Under the pieces are notes generated by a model, which had not been told where the DNA came from, made no database searches, and saw only the letters and a program-made list of their open reading frames with translations. The position numbers and the translations under genes are program-made. From Pontiella desulfatans (GTDB taxonomy: Bacteria; Verrucomicrobiota; Kiritimatiellia; Kiritimatiellales; Pontiellaceae): a DNA stretch of 64,000 nucleotides. Where the stretch lies: NCBI RefSeq assembly GCF_900890425.1, contig NZ_CAAHFG010000001.1, forward strand, positions 558,001 to 622,000, given 5' to 3'. Positions 40,361 to 48,609 of this stretch are shown here, in pieces (position 1 is the first letter of the stretch; each line of letters opens with the position of its first letter).

Positions 40361-40525
40361 CTACGGCATGAGACGGCATCCCTCCGCGAACGCCAGGAAA
40401 CGCTTGATCCAGTCGCAGTACGTTTGCTCCGTCCGGTAGGCATAGTGGTAATAGCGCATCGTTTCGCGCACTTGATCCATTAGTTTATGGTTTTTGTCGG
40501 GTTTAAACTTCTTCTTGTCTTCCAT
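40361..40525 (-). pseudogene. intI: Integron integrase remnant (N-terminal SAM-like domain)
   Basis: Fifty-four codons from an ATG at 40525 with a GAGG box. Residues 14-48 (KLMDQVRETMRYYHYAYRTE, then QTYCDWIKRFLAF) match the N-terminal core-binding domain characteristic of integron integrases (usual pattern: L-x-x-x-R-x-x-x-R-x-x-H-Y-[SA]-x-R-T-E-x-x-Y-x-x-W-I-x-R-F). The sequence then leaves the family and stops; the catalytic domain with the R-H-R-Y residues (some 270 residues) is gone, replaced by repeat mosaic. Its orientation, opposite to the cassette array starting 166 bases away, is the classical integron layout. Confidence 0.8.
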
Positions 40526-40619
40526 AAAAACCTCACTAATATATTCATATCTGGAGTGGATCGTAAGATTAGGTCATCTATGGATTATTGGCCAGCGATT
40601 TTTCCGGTTTTAACATAAA

Positions 40620-40697
40620 ATAGCGTCATACATGGAGAATCCGTCCAGCCCATAGGGTACGTAGGTGGAATATTTTCCATGGACGCAACTGTTCGAA
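40620..40697 (+). other. Probable attI site and first cassette junction
   Basis: Between the integrase start (40525) and the first cassette gene (40718) lies GCAACTG^TTCGAA, with the seven-base box GTTCGAA at 40691-40697. The bases after the caret equal the complement of the TTCGAAC box found at 42425-42431, directly behind the last gene of the cassette, as the integron mechanism requires. The left limit of attI is not visible. A weak TTGGCC...TAACAT promoter-like pair (about 40580-40610) could be Pc. Confidence 0.6.
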
Positions 40698-40717
40698 TAA
40701 AAAATAGAAGGAAGATT

Positions 40718-41173
40718 ATGAAACCAAAATTAATGCTATTGTTGATCATATCGTTACTTTCCATGACGACATTGGTTTCAGCCAAAAATGACATTGTCCT
40801 TTCTGTTACAAAGCAAGATGCACAGGGAGCAACGAATGAAAGTCTAAACAGCTCGAATGCCTGTAGTCTTTTGGAGAAAAGTATAAAGAACAGGATGCAA
40901 AAGAACTTCAAGAACCTCTATGAAGAAAAATATGGAAAAACCAATAAACCCATCCCACTAGAATCCAAATCATGGGTTTTAACAAAAGGAAACTACAACT
41001 TCGTTGTCGTGAGAGTGTCCTGTTCAGACATAATGAATTCCATCGCTATTTATGGGATCAAAGATGGGATGTTAATCCGAGTTTCTGGTGTGCGTGAAGG
41101 AAAAAGTCAAATTCCGATTTCATATGGTGAATTCTCTAAAAAGGTTAATGAAACATTTGGAGTAAAGCTATAA
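40718..41173 (+). CDS. Secreted hypothetical protein, first gene of cassette A
   Basis: 151 residues; ATG with an AAGGAAG box. Signal peptide MKPKLMLLLIISLLSMTTLVSA, then a mainly polar mature part (SLLEKSIKNRMQKNFKNLYE, ...NYNFVVVRVSCSDIMNSIAI, YGEFSKKVNETFGVKL) without a domain I know. The two cysteines could pair in the periplasm. Base composition is clearly richer in A+T than the flanking sulfatase region, in keeping with acquired cassette DNA. Confidence 0.65.
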   Translation: MKPKLMLLLIISLLSMTTLVSAKNDIVLSVTKQDAQGATNESLNSSNACSLLEKSIKNRMQKNFKNLYEEKYGKTNKPIPLESKSWVLTKGNYNFVVVRVSCSDIMNSIAIYGIKDGMLIRVSGVREGKSQIPISYGEFSKKVNETFGVKL

Positions 41174-41253
41174 CTCAACATTTCAACCCACACAGAAAGG
41201 AAGTAAAATGAGTGAAGAACCAATCATTGAAACAGCATGCACAAATTGTAAAA

Positions 41254-42267
41254 TAGGGGTATTCACTTCGCTGGACTAAGTCTGTATCTTGTGGTTTCTT
41301 CCCCTGACCGACAGGGATATTTCCTTGAACCGAACGGGTTCCATAGCGACTGCATTTTGTAGCAGACGGTAAAACAGCATTCCCCGCGAGCGGGAAGTGC
41401 GCCGGTTGAAGCGGAACGTGTATTCGTCGAGATAGTATGCCAAATGCTCGTGACTTACTGCGCCCTGATGTGTTCCGCCAAGCCACCGCTTAAGCAAACT
41501 GGCGACTCGATGGCAAAGGGGGAGCAGGTTCGCGCCAACATCCTCGGATTTCCGAACGACTTTATGGTCGTAGCCCAAAGCTCCCAAACCATTGTACCCC
41601 TTCCACCCGTCCGTCTTCACCTGCGTACCCGGATCAACTGTTTCTCGGATGGCCCCTTCAAGACTTTTGGATGAGGCATCGGGTATTTTTACAAGGCGAA
41701 TGCGACCGACGGCCTTACCATTCTCCTGCGCCACGATCAGCACAAGGGTCTTACCTTCGGCTCCGCGCCCCCGTTTCCCGGGCCTTGTGCCGCCTATGAA
41801 GGTTTCATCCACCTGCACGGTTCCGGTCAGTCTTTCCCGTCCCGGACGTACCATCGCCCGGCGGAGCTTGTGCAGCCACGTCCATGCGGTCTTGTAGCTT
41901 CCGAGGCCGAGAACGCGCATCAGTCCCAGGGCGCTGGCTCCGTTCTTCTGGCTTGTCACCCACCAGATCGCCCTGAACCAGGACGCCAGCGGTTTGCGGG
42001 TGCCCTCAAAGATCGTACCCGAGGTTACAGATGTTTTACGACTGCACTTCTTGCACTTGAAAAGGCCGTCTGCCAGTCGCCACGACTCCCCATGGCCACA
42101 GGCCGGGCAAAGGAAGCCGTTCGGCCATCGCAATGATGCAAGATAGTCGCGACATGCTTCTTCACTTGAAAAGTTCAGTTCCAATTCTTCCAGATCCTTT
42201 GGATACGCTTCCATGAAACGTGTGTACCACAACATGTGGGTCTAGTCCAGCGAAGTGAATACCCCTA
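41254..42267 (-). mobile_element. IS1595-family insertion sequence (ISXO2-like)
   Basis: 1014 bp. Perfect 25-bp terminal inverted repeats, 41254-41278 and 42243-42267, beginning TAGGGGTATTCACTTCGCTG. An exact 8-bp target duplication TTGTAAAA stands at 41246-41253 and 42268-42275; 8 bp is usual for IS1595. One transposase gene on the minus strand, whose stop codon lies inside the left repeat. Confidence 0.95.
41276..42235 (-). CDS. IS1595-family transposase
   Basis: 319 residues (a start at the eighth residue, 42214, is possible). N-terminal zinc ribbon CPACGHG...CKKC at about 43-66, then the DDE-type catalytic core with VQVDETFIGGTRPGKRG (first Asp), VKTDGWKGYNGL (second Asp), and the ISXO2-type block CHRVASLLKRWLGGTHQGAV followed by HLAYYLDEYTFRFNRRTSRS. 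Complete; together with perfect ends and target duplication the element looks active or recently active. Confidence 0.95.
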   Translation of the reverse strand: MLWYTRFMEAYPKDLEELELNFSSEEACRDYLASLRWPNGFLCPACGHGESWRLADGLFKCKKCSRKTSVTSGTIFEGTRKPLASWFRAIWWVTSQKNGASALGLMRVLGLGSYKTAWTWLHKLRRAMVRPGRERLTGTVQVDETFIGGTRPGKRGRGAEGKTLVLIVAQENGKAVGRIRLVKIPDASSKSLEGAIRETVDPGTQVKTDGWKGYNGLGALGYDHKVVRKSEDVGANLLPLCHRVASLLKRWLGGTHQGAVSHEHLAYYLDEYTFRFNRRTSRSRGMLFYRLLQNAVAMEPVRFKEISLSVRGRNHKIQT

Positions 42268-42424
42268 TTGTAAAAAAAAGATATCAGTGCCCCTAAGTTG
42301 GTTTGAGGAAAATTCATTCTGCTCAGCTTGTGGTGGGGAAATTGATACTAAACCACTTTCCGATTTTGCTTATGAAAAAGTACTTGAGGCAAAAGAGGCT
42401 CTTCAGCAAAAAATGAATAAATGA

Positions 42425-42797
42425 TTCGAACCACCATTAAGTCCTTTTGAGTAAAGACAAAAAATCCCCTGATCCAATCTTTTTGCGTTTTTCCAACTTT
42501 CGCTATCGATTGAACTATCCAACCCGGATTCAACTTGTGCCGTTTTTATTTCTACATGGGCGAGTGGAGCAAGGCTCCCTCAAACAACCGTGCGGGCTCA
42601 GGCGGCCAGATCTCCCCGACGAACGGGGTGGCGGCTGTCACGGATTACTAAGATCCATGACGTCCCAGAAAATCATGCGGTACATCCCTGTGCGCTACCT
42701 ATTCAAGAAAAACAGCGGCTGTCTGCGTTCGTCTTCCGCAAGCGTTCCGCCAAGCCTCTCTATTCATAGGCTCTGAAAATGTCATAGGCTATGACCT
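42425..42797. other. Interrupted attC start and unassigned DNA left of IS66
   Basis: TTCGAAC at 42425-42431, immediately after the zinc-ribbon stop codon, is the R'' box of cassette A (complement of its first bases at 40691-40697). No attC arm follows; the missing arm is present at 46610-46688, so the site is split by about 4.2 kb of insertions. The rest (42432-42760) has no gene I can support, only a small hairpin (CTCCCCGACGAACGGGGTGG) and the IS66 left end from about 42760. Confidence 0.5.
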
Positions 42798-43175
42798 ATG
42801 AATGATTCAATACCTCCAACCGAACTGACGATACTCAAGGCCGACACGGCCGGCCGCGTGAGAACCCCCATTGAACAACGGAACGCGCTGCTTGACGCGT
42901 TCGAGCAGAGCGGCATGTCGGGGGCCGCGTTTGCGAAACTGCATGGAATCAAGTACCCGACCTTTGCGTATTGGCGGAAACGCCGCGAGGAGGCGCGCAA
43001 CGAAGACGACGCGCGCTCGGGTCCGTTTTTCGAGGAGATTGAAATCCAACGGGCGGCGGCGGGCCCAGGTGGGTTGGGGATCGAGCTGCCGGGCGGGGCC
43101 CGCTTGGTTATCGACCGGGCCGATCAGTTCCCGATGGTGGCGGCGCTGCTGAAGTACCTGGAGCACTCATGCTGA
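42798..43175 (+). CDS. tnpA: IS66 accessory protein TnpA
   Basis: 125 residues. RVRTPIEQRNALLDAFEQSG and MSGAAFAKLHGIKYPTFAYW form the helix-turn-helix typical of IS66 ORF1 proteins, followed by the WRKRREEA linker. No ribosome binding site is visible in the end sequence before the ATG. Its 3' end overlaps tnpB by 7 bases. Required with tnpB for transposition in studied IS66 members. Confidence 0.85.
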   Translation: MNDSIPPTELTILKADTAGRVRTPIEQRNALLDAFEQSGMSGAAFAKLHGIKYPTFAYWRKRREEARNEDDARSGPFFEEIEIQRAAAGPGGLGIELPGGARLVIDRADQFPMVAALLKYLEHSC

Positions 43176-43522
43176 GTTTCACGGGGGCGCTGAAGGTGTA
43201 TGCGGCGATGGAACCGCAGGACATGCGCAAGAGTTTCAACGGGCTGGCGGCGGTGGTGCAGGAGCACCTCGGGGGCGATCCATACCAGGGGGCGCTCTAC
43301 CTGTTCACAAACAAGCGGCGCAACCGGCTCAAGATCCTGTTCTGGGACGGCACCGGGTTGTGGGTTGCGGCGAAACGTCTCGAACAGGGGTGCTTCAGCT
43401 GGCCGCAGCCGTCGCGTTCCGGCCAGAAGCGGCTGTCGCTCACGCCGGAGGCGCTGGCGCTGCTGACCGACGGGGTGGATCTCAAAGGCGCGAAGATGCG
43501 CCCGTGGTACGAGCGCGAATAA
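43169..43522 (+). CDS. tnpB: IS66 accessory protein TnpB (Orf2)
   Basis: 117 residues. Contains the highly conserved MRKSFNGLAAVVQEHLGGDP, YLFTNKRRNRLKILFWDGTG and RLEQGCFSWP of the IS66 Orf2 family, ending LTDGVDLKGAKMRPWYERE. CTGGAG precedes the start. Complete length for the family. Confidence 0.95.
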   Translation: MLSFTGALKVYAAMEPQDMRKSFNGLAAVVQEHLGGDPYQGALYLFTNKRRNRLKILFWDGTGLWVAAKRLEQGCFSWPQPSRSGQKRLSLTPEALALLTDGVDLKGAKMRPWYERE

Positions 43523-43571
43523 AGTCTGGAAAAATCTGAATGCAACGGGGCCTTTGCTGTCTAAGGGAGGC

Positions 43572-45083
43572 ATGAGTGAAGCTGACATCATCGCCCGCCA
43601 AAACCAGGAAATCGAGTTCCTCCGCGAGGAGAACCGGTTGCTGCGCCAGAAGGTGGATCTGCTCGTTCGCCAGATCTTCGGCGGCGGCAAAAGCGAGAAG
43701 CTTTCCCCCGACCAGATCGAGATGCTTTTCGGAGACGAAACGCCGGGACAGCCGGAGGCTTCCGCTGATGAACCGGCCGCTGTGGAAGCCCCGGAACCCG
43801 CGCGCAAGCGCCAGCCCCGCCGGCCCCGCTATCCGGAAAACCTTCCCGTCGAGGAAGAGATCATCGACCCCGAGCCCGTCAAGGCCAACCCCTCGCTCTT
43901 CCGCCAGATCGGCGAGCAGGTCAGCGAACAGCTCGACTACGAGCCAGGCCGTTTCAAAATCAAACGGCAGGTTCGCCGCACCTTCGTGAAGCGCAACGAT
44001 CCCGATGCCGTGCCGACCACCGCGGCGCTTCCGCCGAAACTGCTCGAGCGCGGCATGATGGCCCCCGGCCTGCTGGCGCATGTGGTCGTGGGCAAGTACG
44101 CCGACCATCTTCCGCTCTACCGGCAGGAACAGATCTTCAAACAACGGTACGACGTCCACCTCGGGCGCAACACCCTCTGCCGCGGCGTCGAGCTCGTTGC
44201 CGAATGGCTCAAGCCGGTCGCACAACAGATGTTCAAGGAACAGCTCGCCGGCGGCTATGTCCAGCTCGATGAAACACCGGTGCAGTATCTGAGTGCCGGG
44301 CGCGGCAAAACCGCCAAAGGCTACCTGTGGGTGTCGAACGCACCCCGGAACAAAGACACCGTCTTCCACTGGGCGCCGGGCCGCGGCTACGAACACCTGA
44401 AGCGATGGCTGCCCGACCAATTCGACTGCATCATCCAGACCGACGAATACCAACCGTATGCCAAACTAACGAAGGAACTCGCATTGCCCGCGCACGCCGC
44501 GTGCTGGGCACACGTGCGCCGCCGCTTCTTCAAGGCATACGAGATGGGCGAACACCGGGCGCGCAACGGCTGGATCCTCCACCAAATCGGACAGCTCTAC
44601 CAAATCGAAAAAAAGCTTCGCGAACAAAACGCCGGGCCCAACCTGCGCGCCGCCATCCGCGAAAGCGAAAGCCGTCCCATCCTCGACCGCCTCTTCCGAG
44701 TCTTCGGGGCCATGTTCGAAGGCGGATACTACAAACCCAGATCGCTCACCGGCACCGCCGTCGCCTACGCCCTGCGCCAGCGCGAAGGACTGCGGGCCTA
44801 CGTCGAACTCGGCCAGGTCGAGATCGACAACAACGGCGTCGAAAACGCCATCCGCCCCGCCGCGCTCGGCCGCAAGAACTGGCTGTTCATCGGCGACAAG
44901 GACGCCGGCTGGCGCAGCGCCGTCATCTACACCATCCTCGCCAGCTGCAAAACCCACGGCCTCGACCCCTACGCCTACCTCAAGGACGTGCTCGAACGCC
45001 TGCCGGACATGACCATCCGGCAGATCCCCTCGGTCACACCCCGCGCCTGGGCCAAGGCCCGGTCTATGAAACTCGCATCATAG
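43572..45083 (+). CDS. tnpC: IS66 transposase TnpC
   Basis: 503 residues from ATG 43572 (GGGAGG directly before it; a TTG at 43554 is an alternative). Coiled-coil start IIARQNQEIEFLREENRLLR, then a proline-rich segment, the zinc-type and core region (VVGKYADHLPLYRQEQIFKQ; YVQLDETPVQYL with a catalytic Asp; CIIQTDEYQPY with the second; AHAACWAHVRRRFF) and the C-terminal block VEIDNNGVENAIRPAALGRK with NWLFIGDKDAG. Full length, so the element may be functional. Confidence 0.95.
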   Translation: MSEADIIARQNQEIEFLREENRLLRQKVDLLVRQIFGGGKSEKLSPDQIEMLFGDETPGQPEASADEPAAVEAPEPARKRQPRRPRYPENLPVEEEIIDPEPVKANPSLFRQIGEQVSEQLDYEPGRFKIKRQVRRTFVKRNDPDAVPTTAALPPKLLERGMMAPGLLAHVVVGKYADHLPLYRQEQIFKQRYDVHLGRNTLCRGVELVAEWLKPVAQQMFKEQLAGGYVQLDETPVQYLSAGRGKTAKGYLWVSNAPRNKDTVFHWAPGRGYEHLKRWLPDQFDCIIQTDEYQPYAKLTKELALPAHAACWAHVRRRFFKAYEMGEHRARNGWILHQIGQLYQIEKKLREQNAGPNLRAAIRESESRPILDRLFRVFGAMFEGGYYKPRSLTGTAVAYALRQREGLRAYVELGQVEIDNNGVENAIRPAALGRKNWLFIGDKDAGWRSAVIYTILASCKTHGLDPYAYLKDVLERLPDMTIRQIPSVTPRAWAKARSMKLAS

Positions 45084-45419
45084 ACGTCATAGATGGCCAC
45101 CTATGACGTTTTCAAAATCTATGATCAATAGTTGTCAAGGGGTGCTTCGCGGATCGCTTACCGTCTTCCGGTGTAACGATAATGCAGTGGAAGGCAGAGT
45201 CCAGTTTGGTGCGGGCTTGCGACAGGGTCGGCTCCTTATTAAATCAGGTTCTGTAAAAACCGGAGGCGGCGGTTCCAATCAAGACGATCGGGTACGGGTT
45301 CTTTCCAGCGCGGCTGATTCGGATTCAAACCATTTTATTATGCCGTGCATCGGATGACCACTTTGTCCCAGTTAGAATATCCGGATCACCACCGCCTCCT
45401 TATAAAAGTGTATATTAAA
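45084..45419. other. Gene-free stretch between IS66 and the IS110-type gene
   Basis: Holds the IS66 right end to about 45131. The remainder has no supported gene. CAGTTAG at 45369-45375 is the inverted counterpart of CTAACTG at 46582-46588 and may mark subterminal repeats of the IS110-type element. Confidence 0.4.
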
Positions 45420-46609
45420 TCATCGTCGCCCCTTAATCAGCTGGTCGACATTAAAGCCGGTTTTGCGATCGAGCATGAAATAAACCGCCCTGGCAATCTT
45501 GGCTGCGATAATAGCGTTGGCCGTGTGCTTGCCCTTCTTGCGCTCGAGTTTCTGGTAGTAGGCATTGAGTTTCGGGTCGGCACGTTTACCAAGAATAGCG
45601 GCCTGCATGAAAGCCCACTTTAAATATGGATTACCCATCTTACGCCCTTTGCCGCCAAAGTCCTTGCCGCCGCTTTCATTAGTCCCGCAAACCAGGCGGC
45701 AATAACTGATGTAATCCTTCACCGTAGGAAAACGTTTAATATCGATCGTTTCGTAAATAATCGTGAGAGCCAGAATCTTTCCGATGCCCGACGCTGTGCG
45801 AATCAACCGATAATCCTGTTGCTGAAAATCCCGGGCATGCTTTTCGATGCGCTGCTCCATTTTAAGAATAATCTCATCGTAGCTTTCAATAATGAACAGT
45901 TCAGCTTCACTCGTAAACGAATCCACCGGATTATCAAAACTCGCCCGCACGCCTTCTCTCCAGCGCTCCTTACTATTGGAGCTGATCGTCAGAGGCTGGT
46001 TGCCTGCGGCCATGACTTCGCTGGTAGAATGGCCGGTGAGTTCTGAGCGGTTTTTAACAAACTTGTTTCGACGCCTGAGCAGCTTACGCACAGGTCGCAG
46101 ATCACGGGGACAGACATAAGCCGGCGGGATCCGGTTCGTGCGCAGGCATTCGGCCAGTTCACGGCAATCCTCTTTGTCGTTCTTATGCTTATTCGCTGCG
46201 ATTGATTTCACATAGTACGCATGGGCCAGTACAAAGTTGATTCCGGCATCCTCGCAGGCATCGGCCAGCCAGAAACATACAAAGCAGCTCTCGCATGTTA
46301 CGGTCAGATCATGACGGTACGGCTCCACCAGTTTTAAGAAAAAAGCGAAGTCATTGTTTCTAATATTTCGATGCACCAGGATATTTCCCTCCTGATCCAT
46401 CACACAGATGTACATTTGTCGGGTATGCAGGTCGATTCCGCAGTTGAATTTCGTCGTTGTTTTGTAATACTTCATTCATGCCTCCTTCGATTAGTGCTAA
46501 TTGGAGACGCCATCCTCGGGTGGTCAGCCGTATTGCTTGGCCAGAGGGGGGCATCTAATTTTAGTTTAAGGAATAATCGTCCTAACTGAAGGACTTAGAT
46601 GAGTATCAA
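45369..46609 (-). mobile_element. IS110-family element next to a headless attC
   Basis: Limits are estimates from the CAGTTAG/CTAACTG inverted pair near both ends and from the point (about 46610) where attC sequence starts. The element has one transposase gene on the minus strand. The right side ends where the R'' box of the attC would be. IS110 elements of the IS1111-attC group are known to insert into integron attC sites; whether this one belongs to that group is inference. Confidence 0.5.
45420..46475 (-). CDS. IS110-family transposase
   Basis: 351 residues, start with a near-perfect GAAGGAGG box. N-terminal DEDD domain: FNCGIDLHTRQMYICVMD, TCESCFVCFWLADACEDAGI, KNDKEDCRELAECLR. The C-terminal Tnp20-type domain has LIRTASGIGKILALTIIYET and SYCRLVCGTNESGGKDFGGK, which holds the catalytic Ser region. 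Full length. Different subgroup from the fragment at 2709-2822. Confidence 0.93.
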   Translation of the reverse strand: MKYYKTTTKFNCGIDLHTRQMYICVMDQEGNILVHRNIRNNDFAFFLKLVEPYRHDLTVTCESCFVCFWLADACEDAGINFVLAHAYYVKSIAANKHKNDKEDCRELAECLRTNRIPPAYVCPRDLRPVRKLLRRRNKFVKNRSELTGHSTSEVMAAGNQPLTISSNSKERWREGVRASFDNPVDSFTSEAELFIIESYDEIILKMEQRIEKHARDFQQQDYRLIRTASGIGKILALTIIYETIDIKRFPTVKDYISYCRLVCGTNESGGKDFGGKGRKMGNPYLKWAFMQAAILGKRADPKLNAYYQKLERKKGKHTANAIIAAKIARAVYFMLDRKTGFNVDQLIKGRR

Positions 46610-46688
46610 GCTCATTGACCCTACTTGGACAACGCCCGTCGAGTCAGGCAACGATTAACCCCCAAGCGGGTCATGAGTAACGTTAGCA
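46610..46688 (+). other. attC site of cassette A, right part (R'' box displaced)
   Basis: CTCATTGACCCTACTTGGAC then AACGCCCG at the left and CCAAGCGGGTCATGAG then TAACG^TTAGCA at the right form the paired arms of an attC. GACCCTACTTGGACAACGCC is identical to the site at 48327. The R' box GTTAGCA is at 46682-46688. The R'' box is missing here and matches the TTCGAAC at 42425-42431; joined, the site would be about 86-90 bases, like the two complete ones. Confidence 0.7.
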
Positions 46689-46708
46689 GCAAATAGGAAA
46701 ACAGATCA

Positions 46709-47680
46709 TTGTTCGAACACGAAAAATTTGATGTCTACGATTATGAGGATATCCCTCTTAACGAAGATATTTACATCATGGATGAAATCTACCTCGAAGA
46801 ATATGAGGCACAGCTAGTAAAATTCTTTAGTGATGGAGAAAACTTCGACCCCGTTGGCTACATAAGCTATGCGTCTGTCAGCGCAGTTAACAGCAAGTCG
46901 GTAGAAATTTCATTAGCAGTAAATATTTGGGACAGATATCACCACGTTAATATAACTCTCCCTCGGGATCAGTTTGTTACCTGTGTCGGTTCATGGCAAA
47001 CAGATGAAAAACCACACCTTTTCGTTAAAACAGATTGGCACAACACTCTGTACCGAAGAAATTATTCGATTTTTACACTAATAGATGTCGCTGATTTTAA
47101 AAAGGGAATGGATGACGGTCTCGTTAAAAGGGATGTCCTACTTTCTTTGCGAGACCAAATCGATGAACTTGCAACGGAATATAAAAATATTTCGTTTATA
47201 TCATTTGCGGACAGCCTGATATTAAAAAGCAATTGGACTACCGCAAATTTCAGAGTTAAGCAAAAATATACATACTCTCCCGAGGTGTTCATTGAACTAT
47301 CGATAAAAATTAACGAGATCTATTCTAAAACACTTGGCTTATCGACATATGCAATCATCACTCAAGGTTCTAATGAGTATTATGACGACCCATTACTTCA
47401 TATTTCAAAATCACAAAACCACATTTGTCTTAATAGTCTTGGAACACCATTTGCGCAATTAATCGAAATAGATGCTGCGGCACGGGGTGGAGTGAGAGAA
47501 GGTTTGCATCCCAAGTCAGACCTCTACATGGATGTCCAATACTTCTATTCTCTGAATTTCAAATCTGGATTTGAGAAAAACTCAGAACCATATAACAGCT
47601 ACAAAAGTAAAATGATGTCCGAACCATCCAAATATTACTACTCAACATATGATCGGATTACCGAGAACTTAGAAAAATAA
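46709..47680 (+). CDS. Hypothetical protein of cassette 1
   Basis: 323 residues from a TTG start (46709) with TAGGAAA upstream; the next ATG would remove 20 acidic residues (FEHEKFDVYDYEDIPLNEDI). It has an acidic N-terminus, then mixed alpha/beta sequence such as VEISLAVNIWDRYHHVNITL, FISFADSLILKSNWTTANFR and STYAIITQGSNEYYDDPLLH. The FADSLILK segment and the ITQG block look like a nucleotide-cyclase or GGDEF-like core in rhythm, but I see no catalytic signature and do not assign a function. A+T-rich. Contained exactly between the cassette boundaries 46683 and 47762. Confidence 0.6.
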   Translation: MFEHEKFDVYDYEDIPLNEDIYIMDEIYLEEYEAQLVKFFSDGENFDPVGYISYASVSAVNSKSVEISLAVNIWDRYHHVNITLPRDQFVTCVGSWQTDEKPHLFVKTDWHNTLYRRNYSIFTLIDVADFKKGMDDGLVKRDVLLSLRDQIDELATEYKNISFISFADSLILKSNWTTANFRVKQKYTYSPEVFIELSIKINEIYSKTLGLSTYAIITQGSNEYYDDPLLHISKSQNHICLNSLGTPFAQLIEIDAAARGGVREGLHPKSDLYMDVQYFYSLNFKSGFEKNSEPYNSYKSKMMSEPSKYYYSTYDRITENLEK

Positions 47681-47681
47681 T

Positions 47682-47768
47682 TGCTAACCAGAACGTAGAA
47701 CCTATCGTGACAACGCCCGTTGATGAAGTTGAAGCACAATCCACTCAGGCTCACGTTTAACGTTAGGC
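47682..47768 (+). other. attC site of cassette 1
   Basis: 87 bases. R'' box TGCTAAC at 47682-47688 is the exact complement of GTTAGCA, the bases that open cassette 1 at 46682-46688. R' box GTTAGGC at 47762-47768. Internal GACAACGCCCG is shared with the other two sites. It begins one base after the stop codon of the cassette gene. Confidence 0.85.
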
Positions 47769-47772
47769 AGTG

Positions 47773-48297
47773 ATGAATATGAGTGTATTAATAGCATTAT
47801 CCATTGCATTTATAACCTTTTATTTGGTGTCTATTGTTACCAATGCAAAAAAGGTTCGTTCAGATGCAGTTAGATGGTTGAGCTGCAGCGATTTTAGATC
47901 TTCTTTCTTTATCAAATGTGATCTAACACATGAGATAGTAAAAATAGAAAGCGATCCGATTCCGGTGATAGAAAGCGTTCTTAAAGACAATAAACTTATG
48001 GTGTATAAGAATAATCATCACCTCGTTGCAACAACCGCTAATAAATTTTCATCAGTGGAGATCGCTGTGAAGGTATTTGTTTCTGACGGACATCTTATGG
48101 TTTGTATTCGAGACTCATACCATTCAAACTTGATATCTGATTATTATTTTGAGAAACACAAAAATTCTATCTCCCATCTCAGGGATCTCATTTTGGAAAC
48201 ATCATGTGGGGACTGGAAACAAGATTGGTTTGAGAGCGGGCAAAAAGAGAGATATTCAAAAGCAAGAGATTATAGAAGGCCGAGACAAAAACAGTAA
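47773..48297 (+). CDS. Membrane-anchored hypothetical protein of cassette 2
   Basis: 174 residues; the gene starts four bases after the attC end, so the leader is almost absent and no ribosome binding site is visible (a GTG at 47770 or ATG at 47779 are alternatives). One N-terminal membrane helix MSVLIALSIAFITFYLVSIV, then a soluble domain with FFIKCDLTHEIVKIESDPIP and HLVATTANKFSSVEIAVKVF, ending in a basic tail (YSKARDYRRPRQKQ). No family recognised. Confidence 0.6.
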   Translation: MNMSVLIALSIAFITFYLVSIVTNAKKVRSDAVRWLSCSDFRSSFFIKCDLTHEIVKIESDPIPVIESVLKDNKLMVYKNNHHLVATTANKFSSVEIAVKVFVSDGHLMVCIRDSYHSNLISDYYFEKHKNSISHLRDLILETSCGDWKQDWFESGQKERYSKARDYRRPRQKQ

Positions 48298-48326
48298 ATT
48301 CACTTAGTCTATGGAAAGAAAAACAG

Positions 48327-48414
48327 GCCTAACCAGATCCTTGACCCTACTTGGACAACGCCCGATTTTGAAGGCAACGTCTATTTCCCAAGCGGGTCAG
48401 GATTAACGTTCGAA
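48327..48414 (+). other. attC site of cassette 2
   Basis: 88 bases. R'' box GCCTAAC at 48327-48333 is the exact complement of GTTAGGC that opens cassette 2. Arms GATCCTTGACCCTACTTGG and CCAAGCGGGTCAGGAT pair with one bulge. R' box GTTCGAA at 48408-48414; the TTCGAATAA that follows opens cassette 3 and equals the opening of cassette A. Confidence 0.85.
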
Positions 48415-48426
48415 TAAGGAAATATC

Positions 48427-48609
48427 ATGAGTAAAAAAGCTAGAATTGCAATTGCATGGTACAAACCTGAGCAGTGGGCATTATTAAAAGCCTACTCCGT
48501 TGATAAAGAAGTGATTGAAGACACCTTTGAGGAATGGGCAGAACATGCTGACAAACAATTTGAAGGCATGGAAAAGGGGTCAGGCCGCCTAAATCGTCAT
48601 TTTGGTTGA
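48427..48609 (+). CDS. Small cassette 3 protein, 3' end probably altered
   Basis: 60 residues with an AAGGA box. MSKKARIAIAWYKPEQWALL, then KAYSVDKEVIEDTFEEWAEH looks like an ordinary small soluble protein. From about GGGGTCAGGCCGCCTAAATC (48577 onward) the DNA is of the type that precedes REP-associated transposase genes, so the last dozen residues (KGSGRLNRHFG) are probably not original. No attC follows; it seems deleted by the incoming element. Confidence 0.6.
   Translation: MSKKARIAIAWYKPEQWALLKAYSVDKEVIEDTFEEWAEHADKQFEGMEKGSGRLNRHFG

What the first reader, a model, noticed from the sequence alone, without database searches (positions are those of the whole stretch)
46682..48414. Cassette boundaries obey the exact R'/R'' complementarity rule
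In an integron array the bases after the crossover belong to the next cassette and must complement that cassette's own R'' box. Here cassette 1 opens GTTAGCA and its R'' is TGCTAAC; cassette 2 opens GTTAGGC and its R'' is GCCTAAC; cassette A opens GTTCGAA (40691) and its R'' is TTCGAAC (42425). Three exact seven-base matches, each different, are hard to explain by chance and show these are true cassettes, excised and inserted as circles.
Basis: seen in the sequence. Interest (0 to 1): 0.82.

Follow-up and report, generated by a model that had tools for sequence, protein, structure and literature searches.

The report
Integron cassette array in Pontiella genome
The window holds a real but decayed integron, a platform that stores genes as swappable cassettes, and each cassette's two ends match exactly as the textbook excision-as-a-circle mechanism predicts, a rule then confirmed on some 160 cassettes of the same bacterial genus; it is a well-documented new example of a known system rather than a new one.

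Summary
It is not chance. In the same genome 19 of 25 adjacent attC pairs close 7/7 (mismatched pairs 1.7%). In six other genomes of the genus, not used to build the attC model, 126 of 141 distinct cassettes close (at most 19 in 5000 permutations). Shifting the boundaries destroys the match. The attC sites fold as expected, with strong compensatory change and almost no G-U pairs. Upstream lie attI and an integrase remnant in the canonical divergent layout. This is an integron array (Pontiella, Kiritimatiellota).

Correction and addition: the half site before cassette 1 is the right half of cassette A's own attC. An IS110/IS1111-type element (42432-46607), itself split by an IS66-family element, inserted exactly after A's R'' box. 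Related elements sit at the same position of different attC sites in relatives. The array therefore runs attI-A-1-2-3 (3 truncated).

The rule is textbook integron biology, so this is a new member of a known kind. The attC-targeting IS lineage is the more interesting part.

The parts
40379..40525 (-). intI remnant: first ~49 residues of an integron integrase (MEDKKKFKPDKNHKLMDQVRETMRYYHYAYRTEQTYCDWIKRFLAF), then truncated
   Evidence: TIGR02249 match to model positions 1-34, E 1.5e-5; translation identical to the N-terminus of the C1:1467546 integrase
40526..40691 (+). intI-attI intergenic region with attI; crossover ...GGACGCAACTG|TT
   Evidence: 168 bp 100% identical to the same region of the C1:1467546 integron, identity stopping at ACTGTT
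40691..42431 (+). cassette A, GTTCGAA...TTCGAAC; contains a 151-aa ORF (40718-41173) and a second small ORF broken by an IS
   Evidence: 7/7 closure; ORFs
41254..42267 (-). IS1595-family element inside cassette A, 8-bp target duplication TTGTAAAA, inverted ends
   Evidence: PF12762/PF12760; inverted ends and duplication
42425..42431 (+). R'' box of cassette A (left part of attC_A)
42432..46607 (-). IS110/IS1111-type element inserted exactly after R'' of attC_A; transposase 45420-46475 (-), ~560-nt noncoding region downstream of the transposase, interrupted by an IS66-family element
   Evidence: NF033542 190 bits; both junctions reproduced in relatives; noncoding region aligned
42738..45161 (+). 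IS66-family element inside the noncoding region of the IS110/IS1111-type element; 8-bp duplication CGTCTTCC
   Evidence: PF05717, PF03050; ends read
46608..46688 (+). right part of attC_A, ending in GTTAGCA, the R' box that opens cassette 1
   Evidence: R1 model 81.8 bits, E 9.8e-20, not in the training set; junction comparison
46682..47688 (+). cassette 1, GTTAGCA...TGCTAAC; 323-aa orphan ORF 46709-47680
   Evidence: 7/7 closure; no Pfam, NCBIfam or PADLOC family; no relative in 43 genomes of the order
47682..47768 (+). attC_1
   Evidence: R1 72.4 bits (this site is in the model's training set)
47762..48333 (+). cassette 2, GTTAGGC...GCCTAAC; 175-aa orphan ORF 47770-48297
   Evidence: 7/7 closure; no credible family match
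48327..48414 (+). attC_2
   Evidence: R1 97.5 bits (in the training set)
48408..48576 (+). cassette 3, opening GTTCGAA, ORF from 48427, cut off at ~48577 by the start of another repeat

Best explanation
This is a decayed chromosomal integron. A truncated intI lies divergent to attI, followed by at least four gene cassettes (A, 1, 2 and a truncated 3), cassettes A, 1 and 2 each ending in its own attC. The start/end complementarity arises because a cassette excises as a circle by attC x attC recombination at G|TT. In the circle the first bases of the cassette (TTNNNN) become the R' box of its own attC and must pair with its R'' box in the folded bottom strand that the integrase recognises. The match survives insertion into an array, so each cassette start matches its own R'' and not the R'' of the preceding cassette in the composite site. 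Cassette A can probably no longer be released through its own attC because an IS110/IS1111-type element split it after R''. Shown: motifs, closure statistics, covarying hairpin, attI and intI remnant, IS junctions. Inferred: that circles form, that the bottom strand is used, and that the intact integrase elsewhere in the genome could still act on these sites.
For: Exact heptamers. Closure in the same genome 19/25, in relatives 126/141, sharp boundary. attC covariation: 11 of 15 pairs with compensatory change in 13 sites; in 134 distinct sites from relatives, 95.0% of cells paired against 70.3% shuffled, covariation score 0.594 against 0.165 shuffled and at most 0.117 slid, and only 3 G-U cells in 2009 (that alignment was fitted to the model, so it leans towards the structure). 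45-46 attC sites in the genome. intI remnant, attI identical to that of a second integron, one integron integrase with an intact frame at C2:975563-976492, 409 bits over a cut-off of 265. One unpaired base in the L'' arm at the same column in all 13 sites, the place of the first extrahelical base, whose identity is not essential (PMC2727003).
Against: No integrase in cis: only an N-terminal remnant remains. The second integrase (C1:1467546) is frameshifted. Recombination and circles were not observed. 11-24% of neighbouring pairs do not close perfectly; several span inserted elements or missed sites, but not each was examined.
Confidence: 0.97

Rival explanations
1. Chance: 7-base inverted matches between cassette ends arise because all R boxes resemble each other (GTT.../...AAC).
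For: The three fixed bases GTT/AAC match in nearly every pairing, so the real information lies in four bases only; mispairings give 1.7-5.6% perfect matches.
Against: 126 of 141 against at most 19 in 5000 permutations; 91% against 5.6% over the four variable bases.
Confidence: 0.005
2. The array is an IS or REP-type inverted-repeat family, not an integron; the matching ends are terminal inverted repeats of each unit.
For: Units have matching inverted ends; the region is rich in insertion sequences, and a REP-associated-looking sequence follows at 48577.
Against: The heptamers differ from unit to unit (32 distinct perfect R' heptamers), whereas one element family shares its ends. The units carry attC hairpins with covariation, lie beside attI and intI, and encode unrelated orphan genes.
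Confidence: 0.01
3. A qualification rather than a true rival: the cassettes in this window are fixed relics. The complementarity is inherited from past insertion and no longer maintained by recombination.
For: intI truncated in cis, IS elements in cassette A and in its attC, cassette 3 truncated, attC clusters scattered over the genome.
Against: An integron integrase with an intact reading frame lies elsewhere in the genome and could act in trans; closure in this genome is still 19 of 25.
Confidence: 0.4

Closest known systems
Sedentary chromosomal integrons and clusters of attC sites lacking an integrase (CALIN)
   Same: intI divergent to attI, head-to-tail cassettes of orphan genes, attC hairpins of similar size and sequence within the genome, closure of each cassette start with its own R''
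   Different: intI here is an N-terminal remnant, so in this window it is attI plus array without a working integrase; the R' boxes often read GTTCGNN rather than the consensus GTTRRRY known from mobile integrons (the latter from my own knowledge)
attC-targeting IS1111 family elements (ISKpn4, ISPst6, ISPa25; IS1111-attC group)
   Same: Transposase of the IS110/IS1111 superfamily, long noncoding region downstream of the transposase, insertion at one end of attC sites (PMC11187229)
   Different: Occurs in Pontiella and its order; best plasmid-borne transposase is only 42% identical; subterminal repeat only about 9 bp (TAAGTCCTT); exact insertion position in ISKpn4 sites not compared because the figures and the original reports are not held

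Membership tests
Integron gene cassette array | attC sites with R''-L''-L'-R' architecture folding to a hairpin | tested here: met
Integron gene cassette array | each cassette's R' (its first bases) complementary to its own R'' | tested here: met
   window 3 of 3; genome 19/25; relatives 126/141
Integron gene cassette array | extrahelical base(s) on the R''-L'' arm and unpaired central spacer | tested here: met
   one unpaired L'' base at alignment column 16 in all 13 sites and unpaired spacers between R and L boxes; the second conserved extrahelical T was not tested separately
Integron | attI next to the first cassette | tested here: met
   168 bp identical to the attI side of a second integron in the genome, ending at the crossover
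Integron | functional intI in cis | tested here: not met
   only ~49 N-terminal residues remain; intact homologue in trans at C2:975563-976492. This lowers 'complete integron' to 'integron remnant with its array'.
Integron | integrase-dependent excision and insertion of circular cassettes | not testable with these tools
   needs experiment or read data
attC-targeting IS1111 group | IS110/IS1111 DEDD transposase | tested here: met
   NF033542 190 bits over cut-off 140; PF01548, PF02371
attC-targeting IS1111 group | longer noncoding region downstream of the transposase | tested here: met
   525-631 nt downstream in five relatives and ~560 nt in the window, against ~130 nt upstream
attC-targeting IS1111 group | insertion at one fixed position of attC sites | tested here: met
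   left junctions NNNNAAC| and right junctions GAGTATC|AA(G)+attC arm repeated over many copies with different attC arms
attC-targeting IS1111 group | subterminal inverted repeats of 11-13 bp | tested here: inconclusive
   only TAAGTCCTT (9 bp) shared exactly, with 6- and 10-bp extensions
attC-targeting IS1111 group | common ancestry with ISKpn4/ISPst6/ISPa25 and a seekRNA matching attC | not tested
   reference sequences not at hand; no guide segment identified by eye in the noncoding region

The most novel reading that the evidence does not exclude
The IS110/IS1111-type elements of Pontiella and its order are a lineage that evolved attC targeting separately from the known IS1111-attC elements. 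They enter attC sites between R'' and its spacer whatever the attC arm sequence, which would mean that an RNA-guided transposase reads only the few bases common to attC sites (or the attC fold) and acts as a natural brake on cassette exchange.
Probability: 0.25. Interest if true: 0.5.

Novelty: new member of a known kind. Interest (0 to 1): 0.33.

Why it matters
Closure of cassette start with its own R'' helps define cassettes but is usually illustrated on a few. Here it is measured on about 165 cassettes of one genus with explicit controls, and it gives a simple test for cassette boundaries and for disrupted cassettes in raw sequence: with the IS junctions it placed the two halves of an attC 4.2 kb apart. 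It documents cassette-rich integrons in Pontiella (Kiritimatiellota); no paper in the held library mentions both words. The IS elements that split attC sites at one point bear on how RNA-guided insertion sequences recognise sites that share structure more than sequence.

Tried and rejected
Chance and boundary-shift explanations rejected. Rfam scan of the window at gathering threshold gave nothing, so the structure was modelled from the genome's own sites. The first estimate of the IS110-type element's left end (45191) was wrong: in that place DNA similarity merely resumed after a variable stretch, and copies without the IS66-family insertion put the end at 42432. Cassette 1 and 2 proteins: no Pfam, PADLOC or credible NCBIfam match, no viral relative; cassette 1 also has no plasmid-borne relative (cassette 2 was not searched in plasmids). 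The weak NCBIfam and PADLOC matches (E 0.01 and above) are taken as noise. A guide segment complementary to the attC junction was looked for by eye in the aligned noncoding region and not found. A Vibrio campbellii relative of the transposase was opened but its ends were not analysed. No structure prediction was run.

Full report
What was claimed and what is there. The six heptamers of the finding are at the stated coordinates and form three exact reverse-complement pairs, each different. A further GTTCGAA at 48408 opens a third cassette after attC_2. The window is G000:C1:558001-622000 of an 8.66-Mb genome in six contigs. The nearest named relatives of the genome's integrase are Pontiella (a MAG at 82%, P. 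sulfatireligans at 76%), so the organism is most likely a Pontiella (Kiritimatiellota); its species name was not established.

The sites are attC. Thirteen sites from two contigs, two of them in the window, align over 86-91 bases. Their consensus structure is a hairpin in which 11 of 15 pairs show changes on both sides that keep the pair. A covariance model of these sites finds 45 to 46 sites in the genome, the weakest at E about 0.001, and sites in 26 of 28 genomes of the genus. In 134 distinct sites, all from relatives and none used to build the model, 95.0% of cells pair (70.3% when partners are shuffled, at most 40.2% when slid), the covariation score is 0.594 (shuffled 0.165), and only 3 of 2009 cells are G-U. 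That alignment is fitted to the model and so leans towards its structure; but the near absence of G-U, which RNA helices commonly show, is what a DNA hairpin or DNA inverted repeat should give. The single unpaired base of the L'' arm lies in the same column in all 13 sites, where the first extrahelical base of attC lies. Its identity varies here (G, T or A on the top strand), and experiments on the Vibrio site found its identity not essential (PMC2727003).

The closure rule. In an array the two halves of an attC belong to different cassettes, so only a cassette's start and its own end should match. In this genome 25 neighbouring pairs give 19 perfect matches, the same-site halves only background. 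Twenty stretches from six other genomes of the genus give 126 perfect of 141 distinct cassettes, against 5.4% of mispairings and a maximum of 19 in 5000 permutations. Shifting the assumed boundaries by up to 8 bases at either end leaves 118 of 142 at the assigned boundary, 53 at the one-base inward extension, one at two and none elsewhere, and pairing drops from 0.88 at base 7 to 0.44 at base 8. Among the imperfect pairs some are long spans (1275, 3066 and 7518 bases in this genome), one ends in the IS end GAGTATC, and the rest were not examined one by one.

The platform. On the other strand, 40379-40525 encodes the first 49 or so residues of an integron integrase. From its start codon to the crossover the sequence is identical over 168 bases to a second integron of the genome (C1:1467546), where a different cassette follows; identity stops within the GTT of the crossover. 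That locates attI and shows the canonical layout, intI divergent to the array. The integrase of the second integron is frameshifted. A third, at C2:975563-976492, is open and scores 409 bits against a cut-off of 265, with attC sites about 1.9 kb from it. It could act in trans; that is inference.

Cassette A and the split attC. The finding left A's attC unexplained. Relatives of the element carrying the 45420-46475 IS110-family transposase were compared. Left ends, where intact, read (C/A/T)ACCATTAAG(C/T)CC directly after an NNNNAAC box. Right ends read GAGTATC, followed by AAG (once AAA) and, in nearly all, an attC arm that differs from copy to copy. One right end (L159) is followed by sequence I did not recognise as attC, and one (L170) by a shorter site. 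In the window these junctions lie at 42431/42432 and 46607/46608. So the element spans 42432-46607. It contains an IS66-family element at 42738-45161 with duplication CGTCTTCC. The right half of A's attC is 46608-46688, the site directly before cassette 1. An IS1595-family element with duplication TTGTAAAA (41254-42267) lies inside cassette A. The array is thus continuous: attI, A, 1, 2, 3, with 3 cut off near 48577.

The inserted element. Its transposase is of the IS110 family (NF033542), with a 525-631-nt noncoding region downstream in relatives, the arrangement typical of the IS1111 type. [quoted passage not shown] The Pontiella elements do the same kind of thing. Whether they descend from the same attC-targeting group was not tested; the best plasmid-borne transposase is 42% identical. 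In this genome's 13 aligned sites the spacer after R'' is mostly CAG (AAG or AAA in 3), whereas inserted copies nearly all show AAG. That suggests a preference for AAC|AAG, but the numbers are small and the last base of the element is uncertain by a position or so.

Cassette contents. The 323-aa and 175-aa proteins of cassettes 1 and 2 have no credible family and no relative among 43 genomes of the order apart from a marginal 23% match for cassette 2. Orphan genes are usual in integron cassettes.

Verdict. It is established integron biology (from my own knowledge of the cassette literature; the pairing of R' with R'' in the folded site is described in PMC2727003). It is a new member of a known kind. 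No held paper mentions both Pontiella and integron, which says little, because most subscription papers are not held.

Noticed in passing
window 42432-46607; also L049 (C4, near 55,000), L166-L172, L174, L175: IS110/IS1111-type elements inserted at one fixed point of attC sites in Pontiella and its order, separating R'' from the rest of the site.
   Followed up: partly
window 40379-40691 and G000:C1:1467546-1468650: The intI start and attI segment is 100% identical between two integrons of the genome that carry different first cassettes; one intI is truncated, the other frameshifted.
   Followed up: partly
G000:C2:975563-976492: Open integron integrase frame of 463 aa with an N-terminal extension; many matches to TIGR02249 in the phylum also sit in open frames of 400-550 aa.
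   Followed up: no
window ~48577 and L038 ~2060: The same sequence start (GGTCAGGCCGCCTAA.TCGTCATTT) cuts off cassette 3 here and the IS110-type copy on contig C4, possibly the edge of a REP-associated transposase element.
   Followed up: no
L179, L180, L181 (G024:C1, about 2305500-2343700): A ~38-kb cassette array in one relative, with a ~240-bp cassette repeated in tandem about ten times.
   Followed up: no
A3 alignment of attC sites: attC stems of the genus use almost no G-U pairs (3 in 2009 cells), a possible general way to tell DNA hairpins from RNA structures by covariation.
   Followed up: partly
attC R' boxes in the genus: Many cassettes open GTTCGNN, with C at the fourth base, outside the GTTRRRY consensus.
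   Followed up: no
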